DNA of 64,000 bases from Bacteroidia bacterium (GTDB lineage: Bacteria; Bacteroidota; Bacteroidia; UKL13-3). The stretch is from positions 1 to 64,000 of the forward strand of contig JAKLJI010000017.1 in NCBI GenBank assembly GCA_023151275.1, written 5' to 3'. How positions within the stretch are numbered: position 1 is the first letter of the stretch; every line of letters starts with the position of its first letter. The translations under genes were made by a program, and so were the position numbers. This document shows, piece by piece, positions 27,198-38,050 of the stretch. The notes below the pieces were generated by a model. It searched no databases. It was not told the origin of the DNA and saw only the letters and a list, made by a program, of their open reading frames with translations.

Positions 27198-27492
27198 CTA
27201 AAATTTCTTTTTACGAGGATGTTGCCTGGTATCATAAAACAAAAGCAACTCAATCCGATCTGATGCTACGCGATAAATCAATAGATTATGCTTGGTAACC
27301 AAGACCTCTCTGAAATCCTTCTTCATTGAACTCCTGAATGTGACATTTCCTAAGGATAATAGGGTGAGTTTTTTTTACTAAAGCTTTAGTGAATTTTTCA
27401 ATCTCTTTTTCTGTCCAGTTTTGGCTTAAATAATCAATAATTCTGTCGTAGCTAGAAATAGCTTCTTCTGTCCAAAAGATTTTCAAAGCCAT
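27198..27492 (-). pseudogene. ParE/RelE-type toxin, frameshifted
   Basis: The N-terminal half (from ATG 27490-27492, MALKIFWTEEAISSYDRIID) is a ParE/RelE toxin. The matching C-terminal half (REVLVTKHNLLIYRV...FYDTRQHPRKKKF, ending at TAG 27198-27200) is in a different frame. The frames join near 27325-27345, so a single-base indel has split the gene. Compared with the second toxin (28220-28513), about eight residues are also missing at a run of eight A's (about 27371-27378). As read, translation stops after 68 aa, without the conserved C-terminal strand and basic residues. It overlaps its antitoxin by 10 bp, the normal coupled arrangement. Confidence 0.8.
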
Positions 27493-27710
27493 CTTTTCAC
27501 TCTCTTAATTGCATCCTCATGTGGAACTAAGATTCCACCATCAGCTTGTTCAATACTTCTATCTACTGATTCCTTAACCTCATCAGGAAGAGCGTCCCAA
27601 CAATCAATCTCTTCTGTTGAAATAAAATCCTTTATCCTTGCAATCAGCTCTACACTATCAATTTCAAAGATTTTTTGAGCAAGTTTAATTTTCTCCAATT
27701 CAATATTCAT
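27483..27710 (-). CDS. Antitoxin of the first TA module
   Basis: 75 aa, helical and acidic, with a C-terminal basic tail (AIKRVKRWL). Similar to the antitoxin at 28510-28731 in order of motifs (LAxKIxExD, IxxIK, LPxxVxxSxxR, PHxxxxKxxK). This is the addiction-module antitoxin type found in front of ParE/RelE toxins in Bacteroidota. The frame is intact although the toxin after it is broken. Confidence 0.75.
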   Translation of the reverse strand: MNIELEKIKLAQKIFEIDSVELIARIKDFISTEEIDCWDALPDEVKESVDRSIEQADGGILVPHEDAIKRVKRWL

Positions 27711-27784
27711 AGCAGCGAACTTTAATTATTTCAAAGATACACAAGTTCTCTATCATCACGAACAGATCCTTCAGGTCTCGCATA

Positions 27785-28081
27785 TCACAAGGAATAGGCT
27801 GGGCATTCTATGCAGTAAAAAACGAAGATATCGTTAGACTTTTCAAATTGAGCAAACATGCTTTGGCCGAAGTAGTTCTTTATCTTCTGGAAGTAATTCT
27901 CCATACCCATGGCAAAGGGCGTTCCATAGAGCAGACCCGGATTAATTTGGTAAGTGCTTACCAATGCAGAATTGCGCAGTGTTGCCAGGTAGATAGAGCC
28001 CATGGGATCATTGCTAAAATACCAGTCTATAACGAATTCTTCTTTTGTTGCAGCGTTGTTATTCCTGCTCCTTGAACTTGG
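27785..28081 (-). pseudogene. Unknown gene fragment, copy 2
   Basis: Open minus-strand frame of 98 codons (in-frame stop TAA at 28082-28084, ATG only at 28001-28003). Reads EEFVIDWYFSNDPMGSIYLA...RNSALVSTYQINPGLLYG and then continues to a plain C-terminus. The block IDWY(F/L)xNDPxGSIY(L/F)A...RNxxLxSxYQ recurs at 28826-28920. The two copies lie directly upstream of the two antitoxins, so the duplicated unit includes this gene. I cannot name the family. Confidence 0.5.
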
Positions 28082-28219
28082 TTAATTAAGGTATTACGCA
28101 AGTTAGCAGAATTGTCGGAATTACTTGGGCAGAAATTTTTCTAAGTTTGCAATTTTGAATCCCAAAAACCCCAAAAATGGAGTGCTTAAACTCATTGATA
28201 AAGCTGGGTTCAAATTTCC

Positions 28220-28513
28220 TCAATATTTCTTTTTACGAGGGCTTTGTCGAGTATCCCAAAACATTAATAAGTCAATGCGACTCGGATAGGTTTTATATGC
28301 AAGTAAATTATGCGGTGTTACCAGTGCTTCGCGTGTATTCTTTCTATTTGTTGCCCGATACATCCGAGGATGCTCAGAGATCAATTCAATTACTCGATCC
28401 GTTGATCTTACAAAGTGTTCGATTTCTCTTGCAGTCCAACTGTTTGTTAAATATTCGATAACGGCATCAAAGGTTTCTTCTGCTTCAGGAGTCCAGATTA
28501 CGACTTTAGCTAT
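28220..28513 (-). pseudogene. ParE/RelE-type toxin lacking a standard start codon
   Basis: An uninterrupted 97-codon frame encodes a whole ParE-type toxin: AKVVIWTPEAEETFDAVIEY at the start, REALVTPHNLLAYKTYPSRI, then LLMFWDTRQSPRKKKY at the end. Where the initiator should be, overlapping the antitoxin stop, the codon is ATA (complement of 28511-28513). The frame is closed by TAA two codons upstream, and the next ATG lies past the middle. The simplest reading is an ATG-to-ATA mutation that silences or strongly weakens the toxin. Rare ATA initiation coupled to the antitoxin stop is the alternative. Confidence 0.75.
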
Positions 28514-28731
28514 TTCTTATATTTTTTCATAACTTCAGCATGTGGGCGCCCTTCTCCTCTTTCAGATTGTGTTAATCCTCTGTTAAAGGATGCTTGAACA
28601 TTAGCAGGTAGTTCTTCAAACCAATTGTCTGACTGACCTTCAAATATCGCCTTGATATAACCAATCATTTCTTCATCGTCAGTTTCGATGATTTTTTTGG
28701 CTAATTCTAGTTTTGTTTCTGCGATGCTCAT
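28510..28731 (-). CDS. Antitoxin of the second TA module
   Basis: 73 aa, paralogous to the antitoxin at 27483-27710. Acidic and helical, with LAKKIIETDDEEMIGYIKAI, ELPANVQASFNRG, and a basic tail KKYKK that ends exactly at the toxin frame. Intact. Together with the toxin frame it forms the second copy of a duplicated fragment-antitoxin-toxin unit. Confidence 0.75.
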   Translation of the reverse strand: MSIAETKLELAKKIIETDDEEMIGYIKAIFEGQSDNWFEELPANVQASFNRGLTQSERGEGRPHAEVMKKYKK

Positions 28732-28992: not shown

Positions 28993-30156
28993 TTATAATA
29001 TGTGTTTGATATAATCGACAACATACTCCTGTGAAATTCGCTCTTGCTCCAACCTATTCTTAAATGGTGTTGTTTGTAATAGTTTTAACATGCGCTTTTC
29101 CGACTCGTTTAATAAGGATAGTTCACCCAAGCTTGCAACTTCGGTAGTTACAGCATACAAATCAAAACTACGATAAGTCTTTTCGTCCATCATAATACTA
29201 ATTGCATGGGAATAATAACTTCTTAATTGGTGGAGGATTTGATAACCATGTTCGTCTATATCACCCCAGTAATATATCTGCTTGTTAGCAAGCCAATCTA
29301 TCCCTTTCAAATAGCTTACATTGAATCCACCTCCGCTCCATATTGCTATTGCTTCAGGTACATCAGGGAGTGTTAGAAAATTCATTTTGTTTTCCGTAAT
29401 CAGAATACGATGACAATCCAGATTAAGTGAGCGAAAGGATGAAATGGGAATACTCATATCCTGAATATTATTCTGGAACGATAAAGCTTTATCCAATATG
29501 CGTATACGAATAAGAGGTTCATCGTATCTCAGGAAATATCTCTCGGAAACTTTTTTCAATTTAGTGTCTCGGACATGCTCAGGAATAAGAAAATCTAAGA
29601 GGGATTGTAACAAAAAGGAGTTTTCTTCAATAAACTTTGTGTGAACTGGTATGGGTAGCTGACGGATATATAAATCTGGACGAGGCTTCGAAAGAAAGTA
29701 TTCGCAAACGAGTATGATATTAGTCCAATCAATATCGCCTTTCATTAACCAGCTGGTATTTGATAATGCCCATTGCTTTAAGACCGGAATAGCAGCAACC
29801 ACCCTCTTAAGATTCTGGATAAAAACATTCCATTCCTTTTTTTTACCTGTGATGTGAAGGTAATCTTCCAATGTTTCAACAATAATACGATTGGGTAGCT
29901 CGTGACTACCGGATCGCCTGAAATTGTAGCTTGATTTTTCGACCAGGTAGCCTATCCCCGTTTCTCCTTTTGAATGACGCAGCAGCATCTCAACCTCATT
30001 CTGTACTTTTTCAAATTGCTGTCGAACATCACCGGAGCGAATCTTTCCTATGCGATCAATGGTACGCGGAAAACAATTTTCGCCTCTTATATGACTTTGT
30101 AAAACAGGTGTCCACCATTTTAAAGCCTGTTGCTTAATTTCCTCCGGACTGATCAT
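28993..30156 (-). CDS. jetD: Wadjet type I subunit JetD (Toprim nuclease)
   Basis: 387 aa. The N-terminal part (about 1-190) matches DUF3322 (IKQQALKWWTPVLQ, PRTIDRIGKI). The C-terminal part (about 200-387) is DUF2220, a topoisomerase VI-A-like Toprim fold: acidic Glu 255 in LITENK and the DxD pair Asp 299/Asp 301 in YWGDIDEHGY. In the Wadjet complex this subunit cleaves plasmid DNA after loop extrusion. The start codon overlaps the jetC stop by 4 bp. Active-site residues are all present, so the nuclease looks functional. Confidence 0.92.
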   Translation of the reverse strand: MISPEEIKQQALKWWTPVLQSHIRGENCFPRTIDRIGKIRSGDVRQQFEKVQNEVEMLLRHSKGETGIGYLVEKSSYNFRRSGSHELPNRIIVETLEDYLHITGKKKEWNVFIQNLKRVVAAIPVLKQWALSNTSWLMKGDIDWTNIILVCEYFLSKPRPDLYIRQLPIPVHTKFIEENSFLLQSLLDFLIPEHVRDTKLKKVSERYFLRYDEPLIRIRILDKALSFQNNIQDMSIPISSFRSLNLDCHRILITENKMNFLTLPDVPEAIAIWSGGGFNVSYLKGIDWLANKQIYYWGDIDEHGYQILHQLRSYYSHAISIMMDEKTYRSFDLYAVTTEVASLGELSLLNESEKRMLKLLQTTPFKNRLEQERISQEYVVDYIKHIL

Positions 30157-33100
30157 TCTCCTGCCTCCTTGTCTTTAAAGCGGTTATTGTGTAATAATTT
30201 TTCGGCTTCATATTGCTTTTTGGTGAAATTACTCACTTGTGAATTGTTCCCATCACGGTTAATGACGAAATGAAAAGAATTGACGTGGCTTTCGATGACA
30301 TGTATTTTTTGTAGTGGTGTTACAATAAGCAGTTGAAGATCTAGCTTTCTGAATAATTCAAGGCCATAACGTGTACTTTCATCACTACCCCGTCCGAAAG
30401 CTTCATCTATTACCACAAACCGGAAGCTACGGCTTTTACTTTCGCCAAACTGCAGGCCGAATTGGTAAGCCAAAGCACTGGCCAGTATGGTATAAGCCAG
30501 CTTTTCTTTTTGTCCCCCGCTTTTGCCCCCTGATCCTTCATAAAATTCTTTTTCGACATCATCGGCCCTATAACGTTCGCTAGCGTTGAACTCAAACCAT
30601 TGCCTTACATCGGTTACTGTGCTGGTCCATTCTTTATCTGCCGATTCGCTGCTGGAAAACCTATCGAGGATTTTTCTTACCTGCTCGTATTTTTCTTCGG
30701 TGTATAGCTCGTTATTGCTGCTGAATGAGTGGGTGTAACATTTCTTCAGTTCTTCCCTGAACAGGCGCACTTCCGGGTTAGGTGTCTGATCCATCAGGAT
30801 GGTGATGTAAGTATCCTGCGCTGCGTTGTACACTATCTCGTTCAGGTGCTTGTTAATAATCTTTATCTTTTCTTTGATCTCCTTTTCATGACGTTCCAAT
30901 TGGTTATCGAATACCGAAATACTGTTAATAGTATGTTTGTTCAGGTCTTCTTTAAAGCGGTCTTCATGCCGTTTCAGGTCTTCAGTAACCAATGTTTCGT
31001 ACCGTTTTACGTATTCATCACGTGCATCTATATTGGCCGGCACTTCATCATATTCAGCCTTTGAATGGTTTTTGATAAGCCCCATACTTTTTTCAATACT
31101 TGATCTAAGGTTAGTTTGATCTGTTTTCAACCTGCTTATTTCCCCATTCGAGCCCTGGATCTGTTTTCTAAACTCTTCCTGTTTATTGTCGATGTTTTTC
31201 AATTTAGGCGTGTAATTATCAAGCCTACTGTCAATAATTGGAAACCATTTTTCAAAAGCTACTGCATCTGTATTTGCAAGAATCTCTGCGCTGTGTTGAT
31301 GTTGTTGATCATAGATTGCAATGTCTTTTTTTAATGAACCTACTGTTTCTGTCAGTTTGGTTTTACTGTTCTCCAGTTCCTTTAGCTGTTCTTCCACTTC
31401 ATCTTTTTTTCGATTCAATAAAGCCAGCTTGTCGTTATTCTCCAGCAATTCCTTTTGTTCTTTTTCCAATGCATATATTTTTTCTACATGATATTGCCAG
31501 TTGATACGGGTATAATCGGTTATGCTTAAAAGCAATGTTAATATTTGCGCATCTTTTTTAAGCTGTTCCTGCTTTTCTTCAATATCTTTCTTTTCCTTTT
31601 GTAGGTAATGAATGGTTCCTTCCAATTGCTGAACAGCCTCTTCCAATGCCTTTATTTTCTCAACATTGCTCCATCCCAATACGTAATTTTTACGGTCGCT
31701 AATACTCTTCCTATCGTCTTTGGTATACCGGATGCGGCCGCTTTTAATTAACCCTTGTTGTGTTATACCAAATGAGATCTGTTGCAATTCATTTACGTCA
31801 TTCACGCAGAGGTAATCACCAAAGCTGCGCTGTAAGTATTGTTCCAGCCAGTCGTAAAAAGGCGTATCTGGTTTGATGCTCAGCTTATAAAAGATACTTT
31901 GGTCGTCTAGTTGCTTAATATGTTTGGTTACTTGACTAGTCGATGCCTCCAGTGATGTGACTTTAATGCCTCTTCCGTCAGGACTTTTTAAGGTATTATT
32001 GTTGATGTAATTGCTTACGCTTCTAAAATGGTTTGGCGGGACCAACAGGCTGATACCAGTATCGCGGAGCAGCTTTTCAACGGTACCTTGCCAAATTGCT
32101 TCATCTTCATGCACCTTCAATAATTCACCGGCAAACGGAAGATCGTCTTCCGGAATACGCAGGTCGTTGCATAATTGGGTGCGGAAACCCACCAGCCAAC
32201 CGGGAATTTGGGTCTTTCGTTCTTTTAGCGATCGTAATTCTTCTTCTTCATGACTCAGCTCATTCTGTTGCTTTCGCATCTCCGTCACAATATTGTCTCG
32301 CTGCTCGCGGTATTTCAGTTCTTTTTGTTTGCCTTCTTCTTCGCGTTTCCGCGCCTTTTCGGTATTGCGTTTAAATGCTTCTATGGTTAACGCACTTTCG
32401 AGGTTACAGGTTTTAGCAAGCTTATCGTAATCGTCATAATCTTTCTTTTTGATGTGCTTTTGCTCTTCCTGCTGTTTTATTTCTCCTGCTATCTGTTCTA
32501 ATCGCTTGCCGCCATTGTTATCTATATCCTGCAGAATGCCCAGCTTCTTACGGTCGAGCTCGTCCTTTTCTTTATTGAGGGTTTCCTGTAGTTGCTCTGC
32601 CTCGCTGAGTTGCTGTTTGGTTTTGAAGATTTCTTCTTCCAGGAGTTTTTTCTTTTTAGCAGCAAACCATGCAGGCATTATGTCTACCATAGCTTCTGCA
32701 TCTGCAATGCTCCTTGTTATTGATTCATATTCTGCAACACCCTCAGCCAACGGTTTTAATATTTCATATTGCTCGCGTGCATTTACTACTGCAGCATGTG
32801 ATTTGTTGAGGTCGTCAAAGCGTTTTAGCAAAGCACCAATCTGTTCTTTTACATCGGTACGTTCAAGCATCTGCTCGCGCACAAAGGTTGTAAGGCTACT
32901 CACAGCTTTCATCGAAACGGTCTGGTAAAACAAGTCTATGGCCTTATCGCTGTTCATGCCTAATAGTCGCCTGAATGCATCGCTGTATTGCGAAAAGTTG
33001 TCATTAAAGAATTGCAGTCCCGAAACCTGTTTTAGCTTTTTGCGCAGCTCACCTATATCTGCAAAATTGCTGAAGTGTTCGGCCACATGCAACGGGACAG

Positions 33101-33554
33101 GACTAATGAGCAGCATCTTTTCAATCTTCCCGTCTTTACCCGGCCAGAATACCTGTGCCAAACATACATGCTCCAGGTAGCCTTCATTCTTAAAATTTCC
33201 GATGATCACCGAGTAGGTATTGTTGTCAGGGCGCAGGTAAATGCGTTTGGCGGCTTTTGTAATTTCTTCTTTCTCCTTTTTATACTCACCTTTTACATAG
33301 CTCAGGATATTGCGTTCTTTGCTTTCGGCACCGGCTGCTTTGTTAAATACAATTTTATGGTGTGGCACCAGCAGGCAGGTAAGCGCATCTACAAGGGTTG
33401 ATTTACCCGAACCGATATCACCTGTAAGCAGGGCATTGTGGCCTCCGGGTTCTATCTGCCAGCATACTTTATCAAACGTTCCCCAGTTAAGTACTTCGAG
33501 GTACTGAAGCCGGAAACCGGTATTGTTAAATGCTAAATGCGATTGTGTACTCAT
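30153..33554 (-). CDS. jetC: Wadjet type I subunit JetC (MukB-like SMC ATPase)
   Basis: 1133 aa. Walker A GDIGSGKST at about 45-53, long heptad-rich coiled coils at about 280-480 and 640-930 around a central hinge-like globule, then the signature SGGQKEK (1012-1018) and Walker B FVVIDEAFG (about 1043-1051). This is the SMC-type motor of Wadjet, which extrudes DNA loops and recognises small circular plasmids. Full length and intact. It starts 14 bp after jetB and overlaps jetD by 4 bp. Confidence 0.93.
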   Translation of the reverse strand: MSTQSHLAFNNTGFRLQYLEVLNWGTFDKVCWQIEPGGHNALLTGDIGSGKSTLVDALTCLLVPHHKIVFNKAAGAESKERNILSYVKGEYKKEKEEITKAAKRIYLRPDNNTYSVIIGNFKNEGYLEHVCLAQVFWPGKDGKIEKMLLISPVPLHVAEHFSNFADIGELRKKLKQVSGLQFFNDNFSQYSDAFRRLLGMNSDKAIDLFYQTVSMKAVSSLTTFVREQMLERTDVKEQIGALLKRFDDLNKSHAAVVNAREQYEILKPLAEGVAEYESITRSIADAEAMVDIMPAWFAAKKKKLLEEEIFKTKQQLSEAEQLQETLNKEKDELDRKKLGILQDIDNNGGKRLEQIAGEIKQQEEQKHIKKKDYDDYDKLAKTCNLESALTIEAFKRNTEKARKREEEGKQKELKYREQRDNIVTEMRKQQNELSHEEEELRSLKERKTQIPGWLVGFRTQLCNDLRIPEDDLPFAGELLKVHEDEAIWQGTVEKLLRDTGISLLVPPNHFRSVSNYINNNTLKSPDGRGIKVTSLEASTSQVTKHIKQLDDQSIFYKLSIKPDTPFYDWLEQYLQRSFGDYLCVNDVNELQQISFGITQQGLIKSGRIRYTKDDRKSISDRKNYVLGWSNVEKIKALEEAVQQLEGTIHYLQKEKKDIEEKQEQLKKDAQILTLLLSITDYTRINWQYHVEKIYALEKEQKELLENNDKLALLNRKKDEVEEQLKELENSKTKLTETVGSLKKDIAIYDQQHQHSAEILANTDAVAFEKWFPIIDSRLDNYTPKLKNIDNKQEEFRKQIQGSNGEISRLKTDQTNLRSSIEKSMGLIKNHSKAEYDEVPANIDARDEYVKRYETLVTEDLKRHEDRFKEDLNKHTINSISVFDNQLERHEKEIKEKIKIINKHLNEIVYNAAQDTYITILMDQTPNPEVRLFREELKKCYTHSFSSNNELYTEEKYEQVRKILDRFSSSESADKEWTSTVTDVRQWFEFNASERYRADDVEKEFYEGSGGKSGGQKEKLAYTILASALAYQFGLQFGESKSRSFRFVVIDEAFGRGSDESTRYGLELFRKLDLQLLIVTPLQKIHVIESHVNSFHFVINRDGNNSQVSNFTKKQYEAEKLLHNNRFKDKEAGE

Positions 33555-33568
33555 TGTTTACAGGTTTA

Positions 33569-34147
33569 TTAATCGTTAGTATCTGTAGCTTCCTTTTCTG
33601 CAGCATATTGTTGAAGTCGTTTCAGGGTATCATCCACCACCTCTGCATTCACAAATCCTTTAAGTATGCGGTGTATTTCGTAATTCTGCGCGCCATCCTC
33701 CAGCTTTCGCAAAAAGCCCAAGTCTATCACTTTGTTAATGGTTGTCGCTATTTTATCATGGATTTTTACCTCATCTGAGCTTACAGGCAGAAACACTTTT
33801 ACGCGGTTTATTATGTCTTCACGACTGATGATAGACCGCAAAGAGCCCCCTTGTGCATCGTGCTCCAGCAGGTATTTGCGTAGGATCAGCACCAGCAAGG
33901 AGGTGTACAGGTTGAGTTGCCGTTTTTCGGCCAGCCGTGGCAGCTCCGGTTCTCCTTCTTGGGGCTCATGCTGGCGCAGGTAGGCATACCCTTCGCTTAC
34001 ATCCAGGTAAAGCTCAAGGCCCATGACGGATACATATTTTTTAAGATCGGCTTCGTGTTGAAGCAGGTTTTCCCATTCATCTTTCTGGTGGCTGTAAACA
34101 ATGCCTTTTAAAAGCGCAATGAGGCTTGGTGAATATGCTGTTGCCAT
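33569..34147 (-). CDS. jetB: Wadjet type I subunit JetB (KITE/MukE-like, DUF4194)
   Basis: 192 aa, the length and motif order of DUF4194 proteins: YSPSLIALLKGIVYSHQKDE near the N-terminus, LELYLDVSEGYAYLRQ, LYTSLLVLILRKYLLEHDAQ, then a winged-helix C-terminal part (VIDLGFLRKLEDGAQNYEIH). JetB bridges the kleisin JetA and the SMC heads. Nine bp follow jetA and fourteen precede jetC. Confidence 0.92.
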   Translation of the reverse strand: MATAYSPSLIALLKGIVYSHQKDEWENLLQHEADLKKYVSVMGLELYLDVSEGYAYLRQHEPQEGEPELPRLAEKRQLNLYTSLLVLILRKYLLEHDAQGGSLRSIISREDIINRVKVFLPVSSDEVKIHDKIATTINKVIDLGFLRKLEDGAQNYEIHRILKGFVNAEVVDDTLKRLQQYAAEKEATDTND

Positions 34148-34156
34148 AGGTTTATT

Positions 34157-35581
34157 TTAGCGGTTGTAAATGATTAGCGGAGCATCCAGCTGATAATCTG
34201 CGCCTGATGCTACATCTTTTATAGTAAGTGTGCTGGTTTGCTGGTTATTGATGTAATGCTTATTGCTAACGGAAGCAATCTGCATATAGCCCAAAACTTC
34301 GGCCACACCTTTTTCGGGAACATAGTGTTCTAGGATTTCTTCGAGCGATACCTGCGATTTGTGCTGTAACAGCTTTTGGATATTACCCCGCAGCAATTCG
34401 ATATCTATAAATACCTGCTCAAACAGTGCCTGAGTATCGGCTTCGGCAATACCGGCCTGTACCGTTTTCTTTTCAAAGACTGTTTTTATTGGTGGCGAAA
34501 ACAGCGGTCGTTCCATTACCAGCGATGGCTTGAAAAATCCACCTATTTCCATAAGAGTATCGTTAGGGTGGAGCTGGCTGGCGTATTCCAGCAGCAGGCT
34601 TTCAATGGCTTCGATGGAGCGCATGATGTGTTTACTTTCGTTAAGGTTTTTTTGCTCCACAAATTTGCGTAACTGCTCAATAAGACCATCGTTGCTGCGG
34701 TTCACTTTGTCGCCTGCATCAACCAGGTTGGTTTTGATGCGATCCACCACTTGCTCGCGTTTTACTTCCTGTATCTCGGGGATCGCATTTACTTTTTCAA
34801 GCAGCGTCTCAAGCTCCTGCTGCATGCTTTCGCTCATTAAAAACTCCCAAAAGCTACGAAAGCTTTTACCCTGATCGGTATTCCAGAGATGATCCTGATG
34901 GCTGAATACCTGGTCGAGCAAATCGGCTTTACCCAAGTCGGTTTTAATAATGGTTTGGCGGGTTTGGGCATCCAACTCGCGGAAGTTTTCTTCTATTTGC
35001 CTGAAATCTGACAACAACCTGCGAGCGGTATCTTCGGCCAGCAGGTAGTTTTCTTTAAGTTCAGTGGCGGCCACACGGGCAAAGTTTCCCTGGCGGATTT
35101 GCTGTATCTCGACATCTATCTTTTTGCGTTCCTGTTCCAACTGGGCCAGCCGCTCTTCGGGTCCGGCTGTTTGTTTTACGATTTGCTGTAAGAGCGAGAA
35201 AAACTGAACCAACCGACTATGTGTGCCTACAAACTGCTGCTTGTTTAAATCATTCAACCATTTGAGTGCGTTTTCGGTAGCAGGAGAAAGTTCTATTACG
35301 GGTTCATCGGCACTTTCGTAATACCTGCGCAAGTAGCCTTGCTGCGCCCATTTTTGCAGGTAATCGGTAGCGGGTTTGTCATAATCTTTTATCCCTTGTT
35401 GATGCAATGCATAAATGAAATCGCCCAACAAACTGGCGAGCTGCACCTGCGGATACACGTTTTTTTCTTGCTGCTTAAACGCCAAATGTAAAAAGCTTAC
35501 CAGCAGCGGAAAATGCTCGGCCCTGAGTAGTTGCAGGGTTTTATCATTGCGATAGAGGGCGAGGGCTTTTTCGTAGTTCAT
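34157..35581 (-). CDS. jetA: Wadjet type I subunit JetA (kleisin/MukF-like, DUF3375)
   Basis: 474 aa. The N-terminal motif (LYRNDKTLQLLRAEHFPLLV) and the whole helical layout match DUF3375, with the long helix LEQERKKIDVEIQQIRQGNF at about 150-170 and a C-terminal winged-helix domain (VSLEEILEHYVPEKGVAEVL). By family it is the kleisin that closes the SMC ring. First of the four jet genes in the standard order A-B-C-D. Confidence 0.92.
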   Translation of the reverse strand: MNYEKALALYRNDKTLQLLRAEHFPLLVSFLHLAFKQQEKNVYPQVQLASLLGDFIYALHQQGIKDYDKPATDYLQKWAQQGYLRRYYESADEPVIELSPATENALKWLNDLNKQQFVGTHSRLVQFFSLLQQIVKQTAGPEERLAQLEQERKKIDVEIQQIRQGNFARVAATELKENYLLAEDTARRLLSDFRQIEENFRELDAQTRQTIIKTDLGKADLLDQVFSHQDHLWNTDQGKSFRSFWEFLMSESMQQELETLLEKVNAIPEIQEVKREQVVDRIKTNLVDAGDKVNRSNDGLIEQLRKFVEQKNLNESKHIMRSIEAIESLLLEYASQLHPNDTLMEIGGFFKPSLVMERPLFSPPIKTVFEKKTVQAGIAEADTQALFEQVFIDIELLRGNIQKLLQHKSQVSLEEILEHYVPEKGVAEVLGYMQIASVSNKHYINNQQTSTLTIKDVASGADYQLDAPLIIYNR

Positions 35582-35601
35582 AGGAGTTAAATAATAGGTT
35601 A

Positions 35602-35751
35602 TTAATCCAACTTGCTTTTCTCTTTGCCAAGTTCGATTATTTTGTTGATGTCAACGAAATGGTCAGCGGGATCATTTTCCGAATGTTTTGGCCCAAAATT
35701 CAGAGAATCCCTGTTAAACACGATGCAGGAATAATTATTCTGAGCTTTCAT
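35602..35751 (-). CDS. 49-aa ORF between fic and jetA
   Basis: ATG (complement 35749-35751) to TAA (35602-35604), 38 bp after the fic stop and 20 bp before jetA, same strand. The product has a hydrophobic start (NNYSCIVFNRDSLNF), a polar middle (GPKHSENDPADHFVDI) and a basic C-terminus (LGKEKSKLD). There is no known family and no strong ribosome site. Its position inside a compact defence operon is the main argument that it is a gene; it could equally be the remnant of one. Confidence 0.45.
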   Translation of the reverse strand: MKAQNNYSCIVFNRDSLNFGPKHSENDPADHFVDINKIIELGKEKSKLD

Positions 35752-35789
35752 TATCAACAATCAATCAATTGGAGTTTTATGATACCAGC

Positions 35790-36914
35790 CTATTCCGACA
35801 GGATGCGGTAAAGTTCAAGATTCAGATAGTAAGCGCTACCCGAAATTATCCTTTTTTCGAGAATGTCCATGCCAGCTAATTCATCTAGGTACTTGCGGGC
35901 TGTGTTTTCGGCGTAGTATTGCTTGTCGGTAAAGTGTTTTACTTTTGTAAAAGGCTGGGTAAAAAGCGCATTTACCATTATCTCCGGCCGGGCAACGTTT
36001 CCGCGGTCTATAATGGCCTGCAATATGGCATCTTTAGCGGCTATAATATCGTTTATTTTGGTATAGGTTAGGTTGGCAGATACTTCCACCGTTTTAAGCA
36101 TAAACAGGAGCCAAGCTTTCCAGTCGGCTCGTTGTGTAATGCCCGATAGTCCCTTATAATAAACTTCCTTCTGCTCCATAATGTAGCGGCTCATAAATAA
36201 TATGGGCAGGTCGAGCAATCCTTTTTTGGTGAGGTAATGGATGCTAAAGATCCTCCCGGTGCGCCCGTTGCCATCCCTGAATGGATGGATGGCCTCGAAC
36301 TGGAAATGACCTATGGCCATTTTCAACAGCGGATCGAGCGGGTACTTTTCGTCATCATTCAAAAAATCATACAGGTTTTGCATTTTTTCCTGTACAATTA
36401 CCGGTCCACGTGGTGGTGTATAAAAAACCTTGCCAGCATTGTGTCCGCTGCCTCCTTGTTTAATGTAGACTTGGGCCACGGGCGGGCGGATACCATCTTT
36501 AAATGAAGTTATTATCCGGTAAATACGAGTGAAATACTCTTCATCAAACTTATTTTCGTTTTTAAGCAAGTATTGGTAACCTTCCCATAGCGCTTCGCGG
36601 TAGTTCAGAATCTCCCTGGCCGGCCCTGGTAAAGGTTTTGACCGCTGCTCGCTGTATGCCTGGTAAAGCTCGTCATCGGTGGTAAATATGTTTTCGATAG
36701 CACTCGATGCTTTTGCTTCCTGCAAGCTTATGGAATTAATAAGCAAGCCTTGGTTGGGAATGGCAATACTGCGCCCCTGCAGCCGGCCAAGAGCAGCCTT
36801 TGCATTGCCAAGCTGCTCATATATATCTACCGACTGGTAATAGTGCGGTTTAAGCGGTAGCAAGGGCAGCGCGTTCCAGGGTAGGCTTCTATCGGGATTT
36901 ACTAAGTATGCCAT
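35790..36914 (-). CDS. Fic/DOC family AMP-transferase (class II, self-inhibited)
   Basis: 374 aa. The Fic core has the complete active loop HPFRDGNGRTGR at 210-221 (catalytic His 210, Asp and Arg present). The N-terminal helix carries SSAIEN at 70-75, the inhibitory (S/T)xxxE(G/N) motif of class II Fic proteins whose Glu blocks ATP. The N-terminus (LPLKPHYYQSVDIYEQLGNA) and the C-terminal winged-helix-like region (ARKYLDELAGMDILEKRIIS) fit Fic proteins that modify DNA-related targets. It heads the operon with jetABCD and is preceded by a periodic operator array, so the winged helix may bind there. The -7 box sits 5 bp from its ATG, implying a leaderless mRNA. Confidence 0.9.
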   Translation of the reverse strand: MAYLVNPDRSLPWNALPLLPLKPHYYQSVDIYEQLGNAKAALGRLQGRSIAIPNQGLLINSISLQEAKASSAIENIFTTDDELYQAYSEQRSKPLPGPAREILNYREALWEGYQYLLKNENKFDEEYFTRIYRIITSFKDGIRPPVAQVYIKQGGSGHNAGKVFYTPPRGPVIVQEKMQNLYDFLNDDEKYPLDPLLKMAIGHFQFEAIHPFRDGNGRTGRIFSIHYLTKKGLLDLPILFMSRYIMEQKEVYYKGLSGITQRADWKAWLLFMLKTVEVSANLTYTKINDIIAAKDAILQAIIDRGNVARPEIMVNALFTQPFTKVKHFTDKQYYAENTARKYLDELAGMDILEKRIISGSAYYLNLELYRILSE

Positions 36915-36918
36915 GATA

Positions 36919-36926
36919 CAAAGATA
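36919..36926 (-). promoter_or_regulatory. -7 element of the fic-jet operon (predicted leaderless transcript)
   Basis: On the minus strand TATCTTTG matches TAnnTTTG exactly and ends 5 bp before the fic ATG. With a start site about 7 bp downstream of the element, the transcript would begin at or beside the start codon. The -33 region, about 19-23 bp further upstream, lies inside operator O1. Confidence 0.7.
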
Positions 36927-36933
36927 TCACTAA

Positions 36934-36958
36934 CCTTAAAACTTATCGTTTTTTAAGG
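36934..36958 (-). promoter_or_regulatory. Operator O1: CCTTAA-N13-TTAAGG over the -33 region
   Basis: Perfect 6-bp half-sites separated by 13 nt, 7 bp upstream of the -7 element. Occupation by a dimeric protein would block RNA polymerase at the -33 region, so this is probably a repressor site. Confidence 0.7.
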
Positions 36959-37004
36959 CAAAAGGTATTCCTGACCTTAAAATCAATTAATGAAAAACCA
37001 ATAA

Positions 37005-37029
37005 CCTTAAATTTATGCACTTATTAAGG
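37005..37029 (-). promoter_or_regulatory. Operator O2: CCTTAA-N13-TTAAGG
   Basis: Same half-sites and 13-nt spacer as O1, with a different spacer sequence, starting exactly 71 bp from O1. A lone CCTTAA half-site (36975-36980) lies between O1 and O2. Confidence 0.68.
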
Positions 37030-37075
37030 TGAGCTGTATTTCTAGCTTTAAAATCTGGGTGTTTTAGATGAATAA

Positions 37076-37100
37076 CCTTAAAACTATACATTTATTAAGG
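37076..37100 (-). promoter_or_regulatory. Operator O3: CCTTAA-N13-TTAAGG
   Basis: Third identical inverted repeat with a 13-nt spacer, again exactly 71 bp from the previous one. Confidence 0.68.
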
Positions 37101-37842: not shown

Positions 37843-37935
37843 AAAAAGTCGCCATATGTACGACTTGAACTTTTGTAGCGGGGAGCAGAATCGAACTGCC
37901 GTCAGCCTTGGGCTGATAGGAATCCTACGCTGAAT
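37843..37935 (-). repeat. Partial duplicate of tRNA-Met 3' half and terminator (possible att remnant)
   Basis: 37874-37901 is identical over 28 bases to 37975-38002 (tRNA 3' end and T arm), offset 101 bp. 37921-37931 repeats the anticodon-stem region (38017-38027, offset 96). The preceding hairpin AAGTCG...CGACTT (37846-37866) copies the tRNA terminator at 37946-37966. The acceptor 5' side, D arm and anticodon loop are missing, so this is not a tRNA gene. Confidence 0.75.
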
Positions 37936-37966: not shown

Positions 37967-37976
37967 GATTCTCTTG

Positions 37977-38050
37977 TAGCGGGGAGCAGAATCGAACTGC
38001 CGACCTTAGGGTTATGAATCCTACGCTCTAACCATCTGAGCTACCCCGCC
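37977..38050 (-). tRNA. tRNA-Met (anticodon CAT)
   Basis: 74 nt on the minus strand. Acceptor GGCGGGG pairs with CCCCGCT (one G-T), D arm GCTC...GAGC, anticodon loop TTCATAA with CAT at positions 34-36, T arm GGCAG-TTCGATT-CTGCT. CCA is not encoded. G1 paired with T72 argues against the initiator, so an elongator Met or a CAT-Ile2 species fits. Perfect promoter upstream and terminator downstream. Confidence 0.93.

What the first reader, a model, noticed from the sequence alone, without database searches (positions are those of the whole stretch)
28993..36914. Fic AMP-transferase heading a complete type I Wadjet operon
Fic, a 49-aa ORF and JetA-B-C-D run on one strand with gaps of 38, 20, 9 and 14 bp and a 4-bp overlap, and the only promoter I see lies before fic. 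Wadjet type I (DUF3375, DUF4194, MukB-like SMC, Toprim JetD) is an anti-plasmid system. Fic proteins modify target proteins, often gyrase or other DNA enzymes. Both have intact catalytic residues (Fic HPFRDGNGRTGR; JetC Walker A, signature and Walker B; JetD Glu 255 and Asp 299/301). Inference: Fic is an added regulator or second effector of Wadjet, for example by modifying a topoisomerase or a Jet subunit.
Basis: partly seen in the sequence, partly recalled or inferred. Interest (0 to 1): 0.85.

Follow-up and report, generated by a model that had tools for sequence, protein, structure and literature searches.

The report
Fic-led Wadjet operon with Fic operators
An anti-plasmid Wadjet gene set sits behind a Fic toxin gene whose promoter carries evenly spaced DNA sites that, judged from 73 relatives, the Fic protein itself recognises, so Fic probably controls when Wadjet is made.

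Summary
A SoFic-like class II fic gene, a 49-aa ORF and a complete type I jetABCD run on the minus strand with the stated gaps. The only Bacteroidota-type -7 box in a non-coding gap lies 4 bp before the fic ATG.

The idea that Fic is Wadjet's regulator or second effector is partly supported, by a different route. Fic is not a fixed Wadjet partner. None of the six closest jetABCD relatives has it, and their slot before jetA holds other genes: Gabija, an OLD-like nuclease, other ATPases. One distant case, in Gallionella, has a different Fic 2 bp before jetA.

Three CCTTAA-N13-TTAAGGTTA palindromes lie exactly 71 bp apart, unique in the genome apart from one hit inside a coding region. Upstream regions of 73 SoFic-like genes, from Bacteroidia to E. 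coli, are enriched in the same 30/41/71-bp spacing. The half-site differs between relatives but tracks the recognition helix of Fic's own winged-helix domain (partial Mantel r = 0.55, p = 0.0005).

Most likely Fic represses its own promoter, as shown for the Fic-HTH protein CccR, and so sets expression of the Wadjet genes behind it. Co-transcription, binding and any AMPylation target are untested.

The parts
35790..36914 (-). fic: SoFic-like class II AMP-transferase, 374 aa, with C-terminal winged helix
   Evidence: Pfam Fic_N, Fic, SoFic-like_C; PADLOC SoFic 311 bits; nearest solved structures EcSofic 9vjc and SoFic 3eqx
36931..37100 (-). operator array: three palindromes CCTTAA-N13-TTAAGGTTA at 36931-36958, 37002-37029, 37073-37100, plus intervening half-sites such as 36975-36980
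   Evidence: exact 71-bp period; one further match in the 3.9-Mb genome, inside a relE-like gene; 8 half-sites against 4.0+-0.7 in shuffles
36919..36926 (-). Bacteroidota-type -7 box TATCTTTG, 4 bp before the fic ATG; its -33 region falls inside the nearest palindrome
   Evidence: consensus from general knowledge of Bacteroidota promoters
35602..35751 (-). 49-aa ORF, doubtful gene
   Evidence: no Pfam or PADLOC match
34157..35581 (-). jetA (DUF3375)
33569..34147 (-). jetB (DUF4194, MukE-like)
30153..33554 (-). jetC (MukB-like SMC ATPase)
28993..30156 (-). jetD (Toprim nuclease)
37976..38050 (-). tRNA-Met upstream of the operon; next to the GH25 gene in two congeners too, with different genes on its other side in each

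Best explanation
Fic here is a SoFic-type AMPylating toxin/defence protein that represses its own promoter. Its C-terminal winged helix binds inverted CCTTAA/TTAAGG half-sites spaced about 2, 2 and 3 helical turns apart (71-bp unit, three units), covering the -33 region of the fic promoter. The locus has placed fic in the exchangeable defence slot in front of a jetABCD cassette that lacks an obvious promoter of its own, so jetABCD is transcribed from the Fic-repressed promoter. Infection, plasmid entry or another change in Fic's state would relieve repression and raise both Fic and Wadjet. Shown by sequence: gene layout, array, its geometry, its recurrence across the SoFic family, its covariation with the recognition helix, and variable upstream partners in relatives. 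Inferred: binding, repression, co-transcription, the inducing signal.
For: Palindromes exactly 71 bp apart, confined to this promoter except for one hit inside a coding region. Lags of 29-31, 40-41 and 69-72 bp in 73 fic upstream regions: 33, 38 and 44 observed against 5.8, 3.4 and 6.1 from other stretches of the same loci and 3.8, 2.0 and 4.6 from shuffles. The geometry model scores the window 15.1 bits against 9.0+-0.5 shuffled, E. coli Sofic 13.0 against 8.5; 47 of 73 beat all six of their shuffles. Half-site and recognition helix match: AENTA with CCTTAA/CATTAA, AEVTA with CACTAA, AEKTA with CGGTAA, TSRTTL with TGGACA/TGAACA, KRQTA with TGTCGATA. Partial correlation given Fic-domain distance 0.55 (permutation p 0.0005); the converse is 0.12. 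Precedent: Fic-HTH protein CccR represses its own promoter through an inverted repeat (PMC9755527). No -7 box in the fic-jetA gap. In two Chryseobacterium loci with 93% identical JetA, exact upstream identity ends 15 bp before jetA, behind Gabija in one and an OLD-like gene in the other.
Against: No binding, transcript or expression data. 26 of 73 upstream regions do not beat all their shuffles, mostly the more distant Fics. Covariation was tested on 22 strong arrays and depends on inferred consensus half-sites. A promoter of another type before jetA cannot be excluded. The Fic-Wadjet pairing itself is rare, so selection on the pairing is not shown. CccR's operator geometry (10-bp arms, 26-bp spacer) differs from this one.
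Confidence: 0.65

Rival explanations
1. Ordinary defence-island neighbours: fic is an independent SoFic anti-phage gene with its own autoregulated promoter, jetABCD has its own weak or unusual promoter, and the adjacency has no function.
For: No Fic beside jetA in the six closest relatives; other defence genes fill the slot; Fic within about 10 kb of Wadjet in several loci without operon layout; fic usually stands alone elsewhere; SoFic is in the defence-gene library PADLOC.
Against: Short gaps on one strand and no -7 box in the fic-jetA gap; Gallionella L083 independently has Fic 2 bp before jetA, behind a palindrome.
Confidence: 0.27
2. Fic is a Wadjet effector or post-translational regulator that AMPylates a Jet subunit or a topoisomerase.
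For: Catalytic and inhibitory motifs intact; operon layout.
Against: Nearly all Wadjet loci examined have no adjacent Fic; no conserved Fic-Jet pairing; Fic proteins related to this one are common in the class without Wadjet (199 of 295 genomes at E 1e-3 or better; JetA in 19 of 395).
Confidence: 0.05
3. Fic and the 49-aa ORF form a toxin-antitoxin pair like Sofic-AS1, and Wadjet is a downstream passenger.
For: AS1 of E. coli Sofic is a 47-residue protein encoded just downstream (PMC12249575); the ORF here has the same place and size.
Against: By eye no similarity between the 49-aa ORF and the 47-aa ORF that directly follows E. coli sofic (sequences; that ORF is not proven to be AS1); no convincing homologue in 375 genomes.
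Confidence: 0.12
4. The upstream array is the target of an unrelated DNA-binding protein and Fic is only its client.
For: Sequence alone cannot show who binds.
Against: Half-sites track Fic's own recognition helix beyond overall relatedness; the array recurs upstream of SoFic genes from Bacteroidia to E. coli; CccR precedent.
Confidence: 0.06

Closest known systems
Wadjet type I (JetABCD)
   Same: All four subunits, order and catalytic motifs
   Different: Headed by a fic gene with its own operator array; near relatives have Gabija, OLD-like or other ATPase genes there
SoFic / EcSofic anti-phage AMP-transferase (3eqx, 9vjc)
   Same: Fic_N, Fic, inhibitory motif, C-terminal winged helix; E. coli sofic has the same kind of upstream array
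   Different: Only about 200 bits to the solved ones and below the NCBIfam SoFic cut-off (289.5 of 550 bits); linked to Wadjet
CccR of Yersinia pseudotuberculosis (PMC9755527)
   Same: Fic plus C-terminal DNA-binding domain; autorepression through inverted repeats is shown there
   Different: One inverted repeat with 26-bp spacer there; multi-unit 71-bp array here; CccR is also a type VI secretion effector
BrxR WYL regulators heading defence systems (PMC9122601)
   Same: Regulator that sits with a defence cluster and represses from inverted repeats before its own gene
   Different: BrxR is a winged-helix/WYL regulator; here the regulator would itself be a toxin/defence enzyme

Membership tests
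Wadjet type I | JetA, JetB, JetC and JetD of type I in one operon | tested here: met
   PADLOC JetA1, B1, C1, D1 as best models; layout
Wadjet type I | JetC ATPase motifs and JetD Toprim acidic residues intact | tested here: met
   Walker A at 45, GGKSGGQ at 1009, Walker B at 1046; E255, D299, D301
Wadjet type I | blocks plasmids by cleaving circular DNA | not testable with these tools
   needs an experiment
SoFic | Fic_N + Fic + SoFic-like C-terminal winged helix | tested here: met
   all three over Pfam cut-offs
SoFic | NCBIfam equivalog cut-off (550 bits) | tested here: not met
   289.5 bits; so SoFic-like, not filed as SoFic itself
Sofic-AS1 toxin-antitoxin | downstream antitoxin homologous to AS1 | tested here: inconclusive
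   same size and place, by eye no similarity to the 47-aa ORF after E. coli sofic; the AS1 sequence itself was not available
autorepressing Fic-HTH (CccR-like) | inverted repeats at the own promoter | tested here: met
autorepressing Fic-HTH (CccR-like) | protein binds them and represses | not testable with these tools
   covariation is indirect support only

The most novel reading that the evidence does not exclude
SoFic-family AMPylases as a whole are autorepressors that bind a conserved 71-bp-period operator array with family-specific half-sites. This coupling can be captured by other defence systems, as here for Wadjet, so that a toxin enzyme works as the expression switch of an SMC anti-plasmid machine.
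Probability: 0.55. Interest if true: 0.78.

Novelty: new variant of a known kind. Interest (0 to 1): 0.62.

Why it matters
How defence systems such as SoFic and Wadjet are kept quiet is largely open. A 2023 paper states that DNA binding had not been shown experimentally for SoFic (PMC10628234). The array gives exact DNA sequences and paired protein residues to test for dozens of SoFic relatives, including one in E. coli, and suggests that Fic may control an SMC-type anti-plasmid system. In the paper searches made here I found no description of either the array or a Fic-headed Wadjet; the library holds open-licence papers only.

Tried and rejected
Recurrence of Fic beside jetA in Bacteroidota: rejected. 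Homologues of the 49-aa ORF: none convincing in the fetched loci or in 375 genomes (one weak partial match). A further genomic operator copy on contig C4 lies inside a relE-like coding region and is taken as chance. The sigma-70 and terminator scans gave no more than shuffles. A viral-contig search for JetC relatives found none. A plasmid search for JetA found 8 distant records; their neighbours were not followed. A wider sample of Pseudomonadota Wadjet loci was not possible because no genome handle was available as a centre.

Full report
OBSERVATION. On the minus strand lie fic (35790-36914), a 49-aa ORF (35602-35751), jetA (34157-35581), jetB (33569-34147), jetC (30153-33554) and jetD (28993-30156). 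Gaps recompute as 38, 20, 9 and 14 bp with a 4-bp overlap. Pfam, PADLOC and motif checks confirm a complete type I Wadjet and a class II SoFic-like Fic with an intact Fic motif, the inhibitory motif SSAIEN and a C-terminal winged helix. NCBIfam's SoFic equivalog cut-off is not reached, so I call it SoFic-like.

PROMOTER. The sigma-70 scan is uninformative. The Bacteroidota -7 consensus TAnnTTTG (from general knowledge) occurs in the non-coding sequence just before fic (TATCTTTG, 36919-36926, 4 bp before the ATG). It does not occur between fic and jetA; one copy lies inside fic. The box is short, and over the whole window its matches are no more frequent than in shuffles, so its place is suggestive only. 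A single start point before fic is plausible but not proven.

IS FIC A REGULAR WADJET PARTNER? No. JetA is rare in the window's family (4 of 64 genomes) and found in 19 of 395 genomes of the class. Neighbourhoods of 137 jetA loci (115 with at least 1.2 kb upstream) were scanned with a Fic profile. The six closest relatives (JetC 58-67% identical; Chryseobacterium, Chitinophagaceae, Niastella and one unnamed Bacteroidetes MAG) have no Fic. In two Chryseobacterium loci the slot before jetA holds Gabija (GajA 824 bits, GajB 756 bits), in a third an OLD-like nuclease, and in the Chitinophagaceae locus an ATPase overlapping jetA. Two of these with 93% identical JetA lose exact upstream identity 15 bp before the jetA start, so the upstream partner seems to be exchanged at about that point. 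One distant locus, Gallionella L083, has a Fic ending 2 bp before jetA, behind a GCACC-AAAT-TGGGTGC palindrome. Other Fic genes near Wadjet lie further off, several of them on the other strand, as expected of defence islands.

Upstream of fic are three copies of CCTTAA-N13-TTAAGGTTA at 36931, 37002 and 37073, exactly 71 bp apart. The pattern occurs once more in the 3.9-Mb genome, inside a relE-like gene. The best 8-mer has 8 sites against 4.0+-0.7 in shuffles. A like architecture precedes many other SoFic-like genes. In 73 upstream regions, self-similarity at lags 29-31, 40-41 and 69-72 bp is seen 33, 38 and 44 times, against 5.8, 3.4 and 6.1 expected from other stretches of the same loci. A model with half-sites alternating in orientation and a 70-72-bp unit beats all six shuffles in 47 of 73. 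E. coli sofic and plasmid-borne enterobacterial relatives have it as well. The half-site changes between subfamilies together with the recognition helix of the winged-helix domain. For 22 strong arrays, operator distance correlates with helix distance at 0.75 and, given Fic-domain distance, at 0.55 (permutation p 0.0005); Fic-domain distance given helix distance adds only 0.12. In several relatives (for example L125, L126) the -7 box lies inside a palindrome (sequences).

MECHANISM. The simplest reading is autorepression by Fic. CccR, a Fic-HTH protein, is shown to repress its own promoter through an inverted repeat (PMC9755527). The Fido paper of 2009 had suggested such a role for Fic-fused HTH domains in general (PMC2686095). 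A 2023 paper states that DNA binding had not been shown for SoFic (PMC10628234). Here jetABCD lies behind that promoter, so Fic would set Wadjet expression, much as BrxR regulates the defence genes beside it (PMC9122601). Binding, repression, shared transcript and inducer are inferred. The 49-aa ORF recalls the 47-residue antitoxin AS1 downstream of E. coli Sofic (PMC12249575), but by eye is not similar to the 47-aa ORF found after E. coli sofic and has no convincing homologue in 375 genomes.

SETTING. The operon lies downstream of tRNA-Met (37976-38050), with a repeated tRNA 3' piece at 37878-37900. In two congeners the tRNA-Met and the GH25 gene stay together while the other side of the tRNA carries different genes in each, so this is a variable site. 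No JetA was found in the three congeners searched.

VERDICT. Observation confirmed. 'Fic as regulator' is supported by a transcriptional route; 'Fic modifies Jet or gyrase' is unsupported. New variant of a known kind: a Wadjet operon behind a fic promoter that Fic itself probably recognises. The more general finding is the widespread SoFic operator array.

Noticed in passing
window 37878-37900 and 37976-38050: A 23-bp exact copy of the tRNA-Met 3' part lies about 100 bp downstream of the tRNA, followed by a second terminator-like hairpin: a duplicated tRNA end or an old integration mark.
   Followed up: partly
window 27198-28731: Two tandem sets of a 73-75-aa ORF followed by short broken ORFs that by eye look like decayed toxin-antitoxin pairs downstream of jetD. 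Pfam gave no convincing family.
   Followed up: no
L140-L186 (mostly genomes of family f84): One family outside the window's class has JetA in about fifty sampled genomes, as if Wadjet were near-core there. Which family it is was not established.
   Followed up: partly
L013, L031, L044, L045, L059, L100: Wadjet loci with about 1-3 kb of extra sequence between jetA, jetB, jetC or jetD.
   Followed up: no
L139 (E. coli DA33133), upstream of 2501: E. coli sofic has a long version of the array (about four units of about 70 bp) with TGTCGATA half-sites; a similar gene is in 278 of 5426 E. coli genomes.
   Followed up: partly
L026, L029: Gabija gajAB directly upstream of jetABCD on the same strand, about 95 bp apart, in two Chryseobacterium genomes.
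   Followed up: partly
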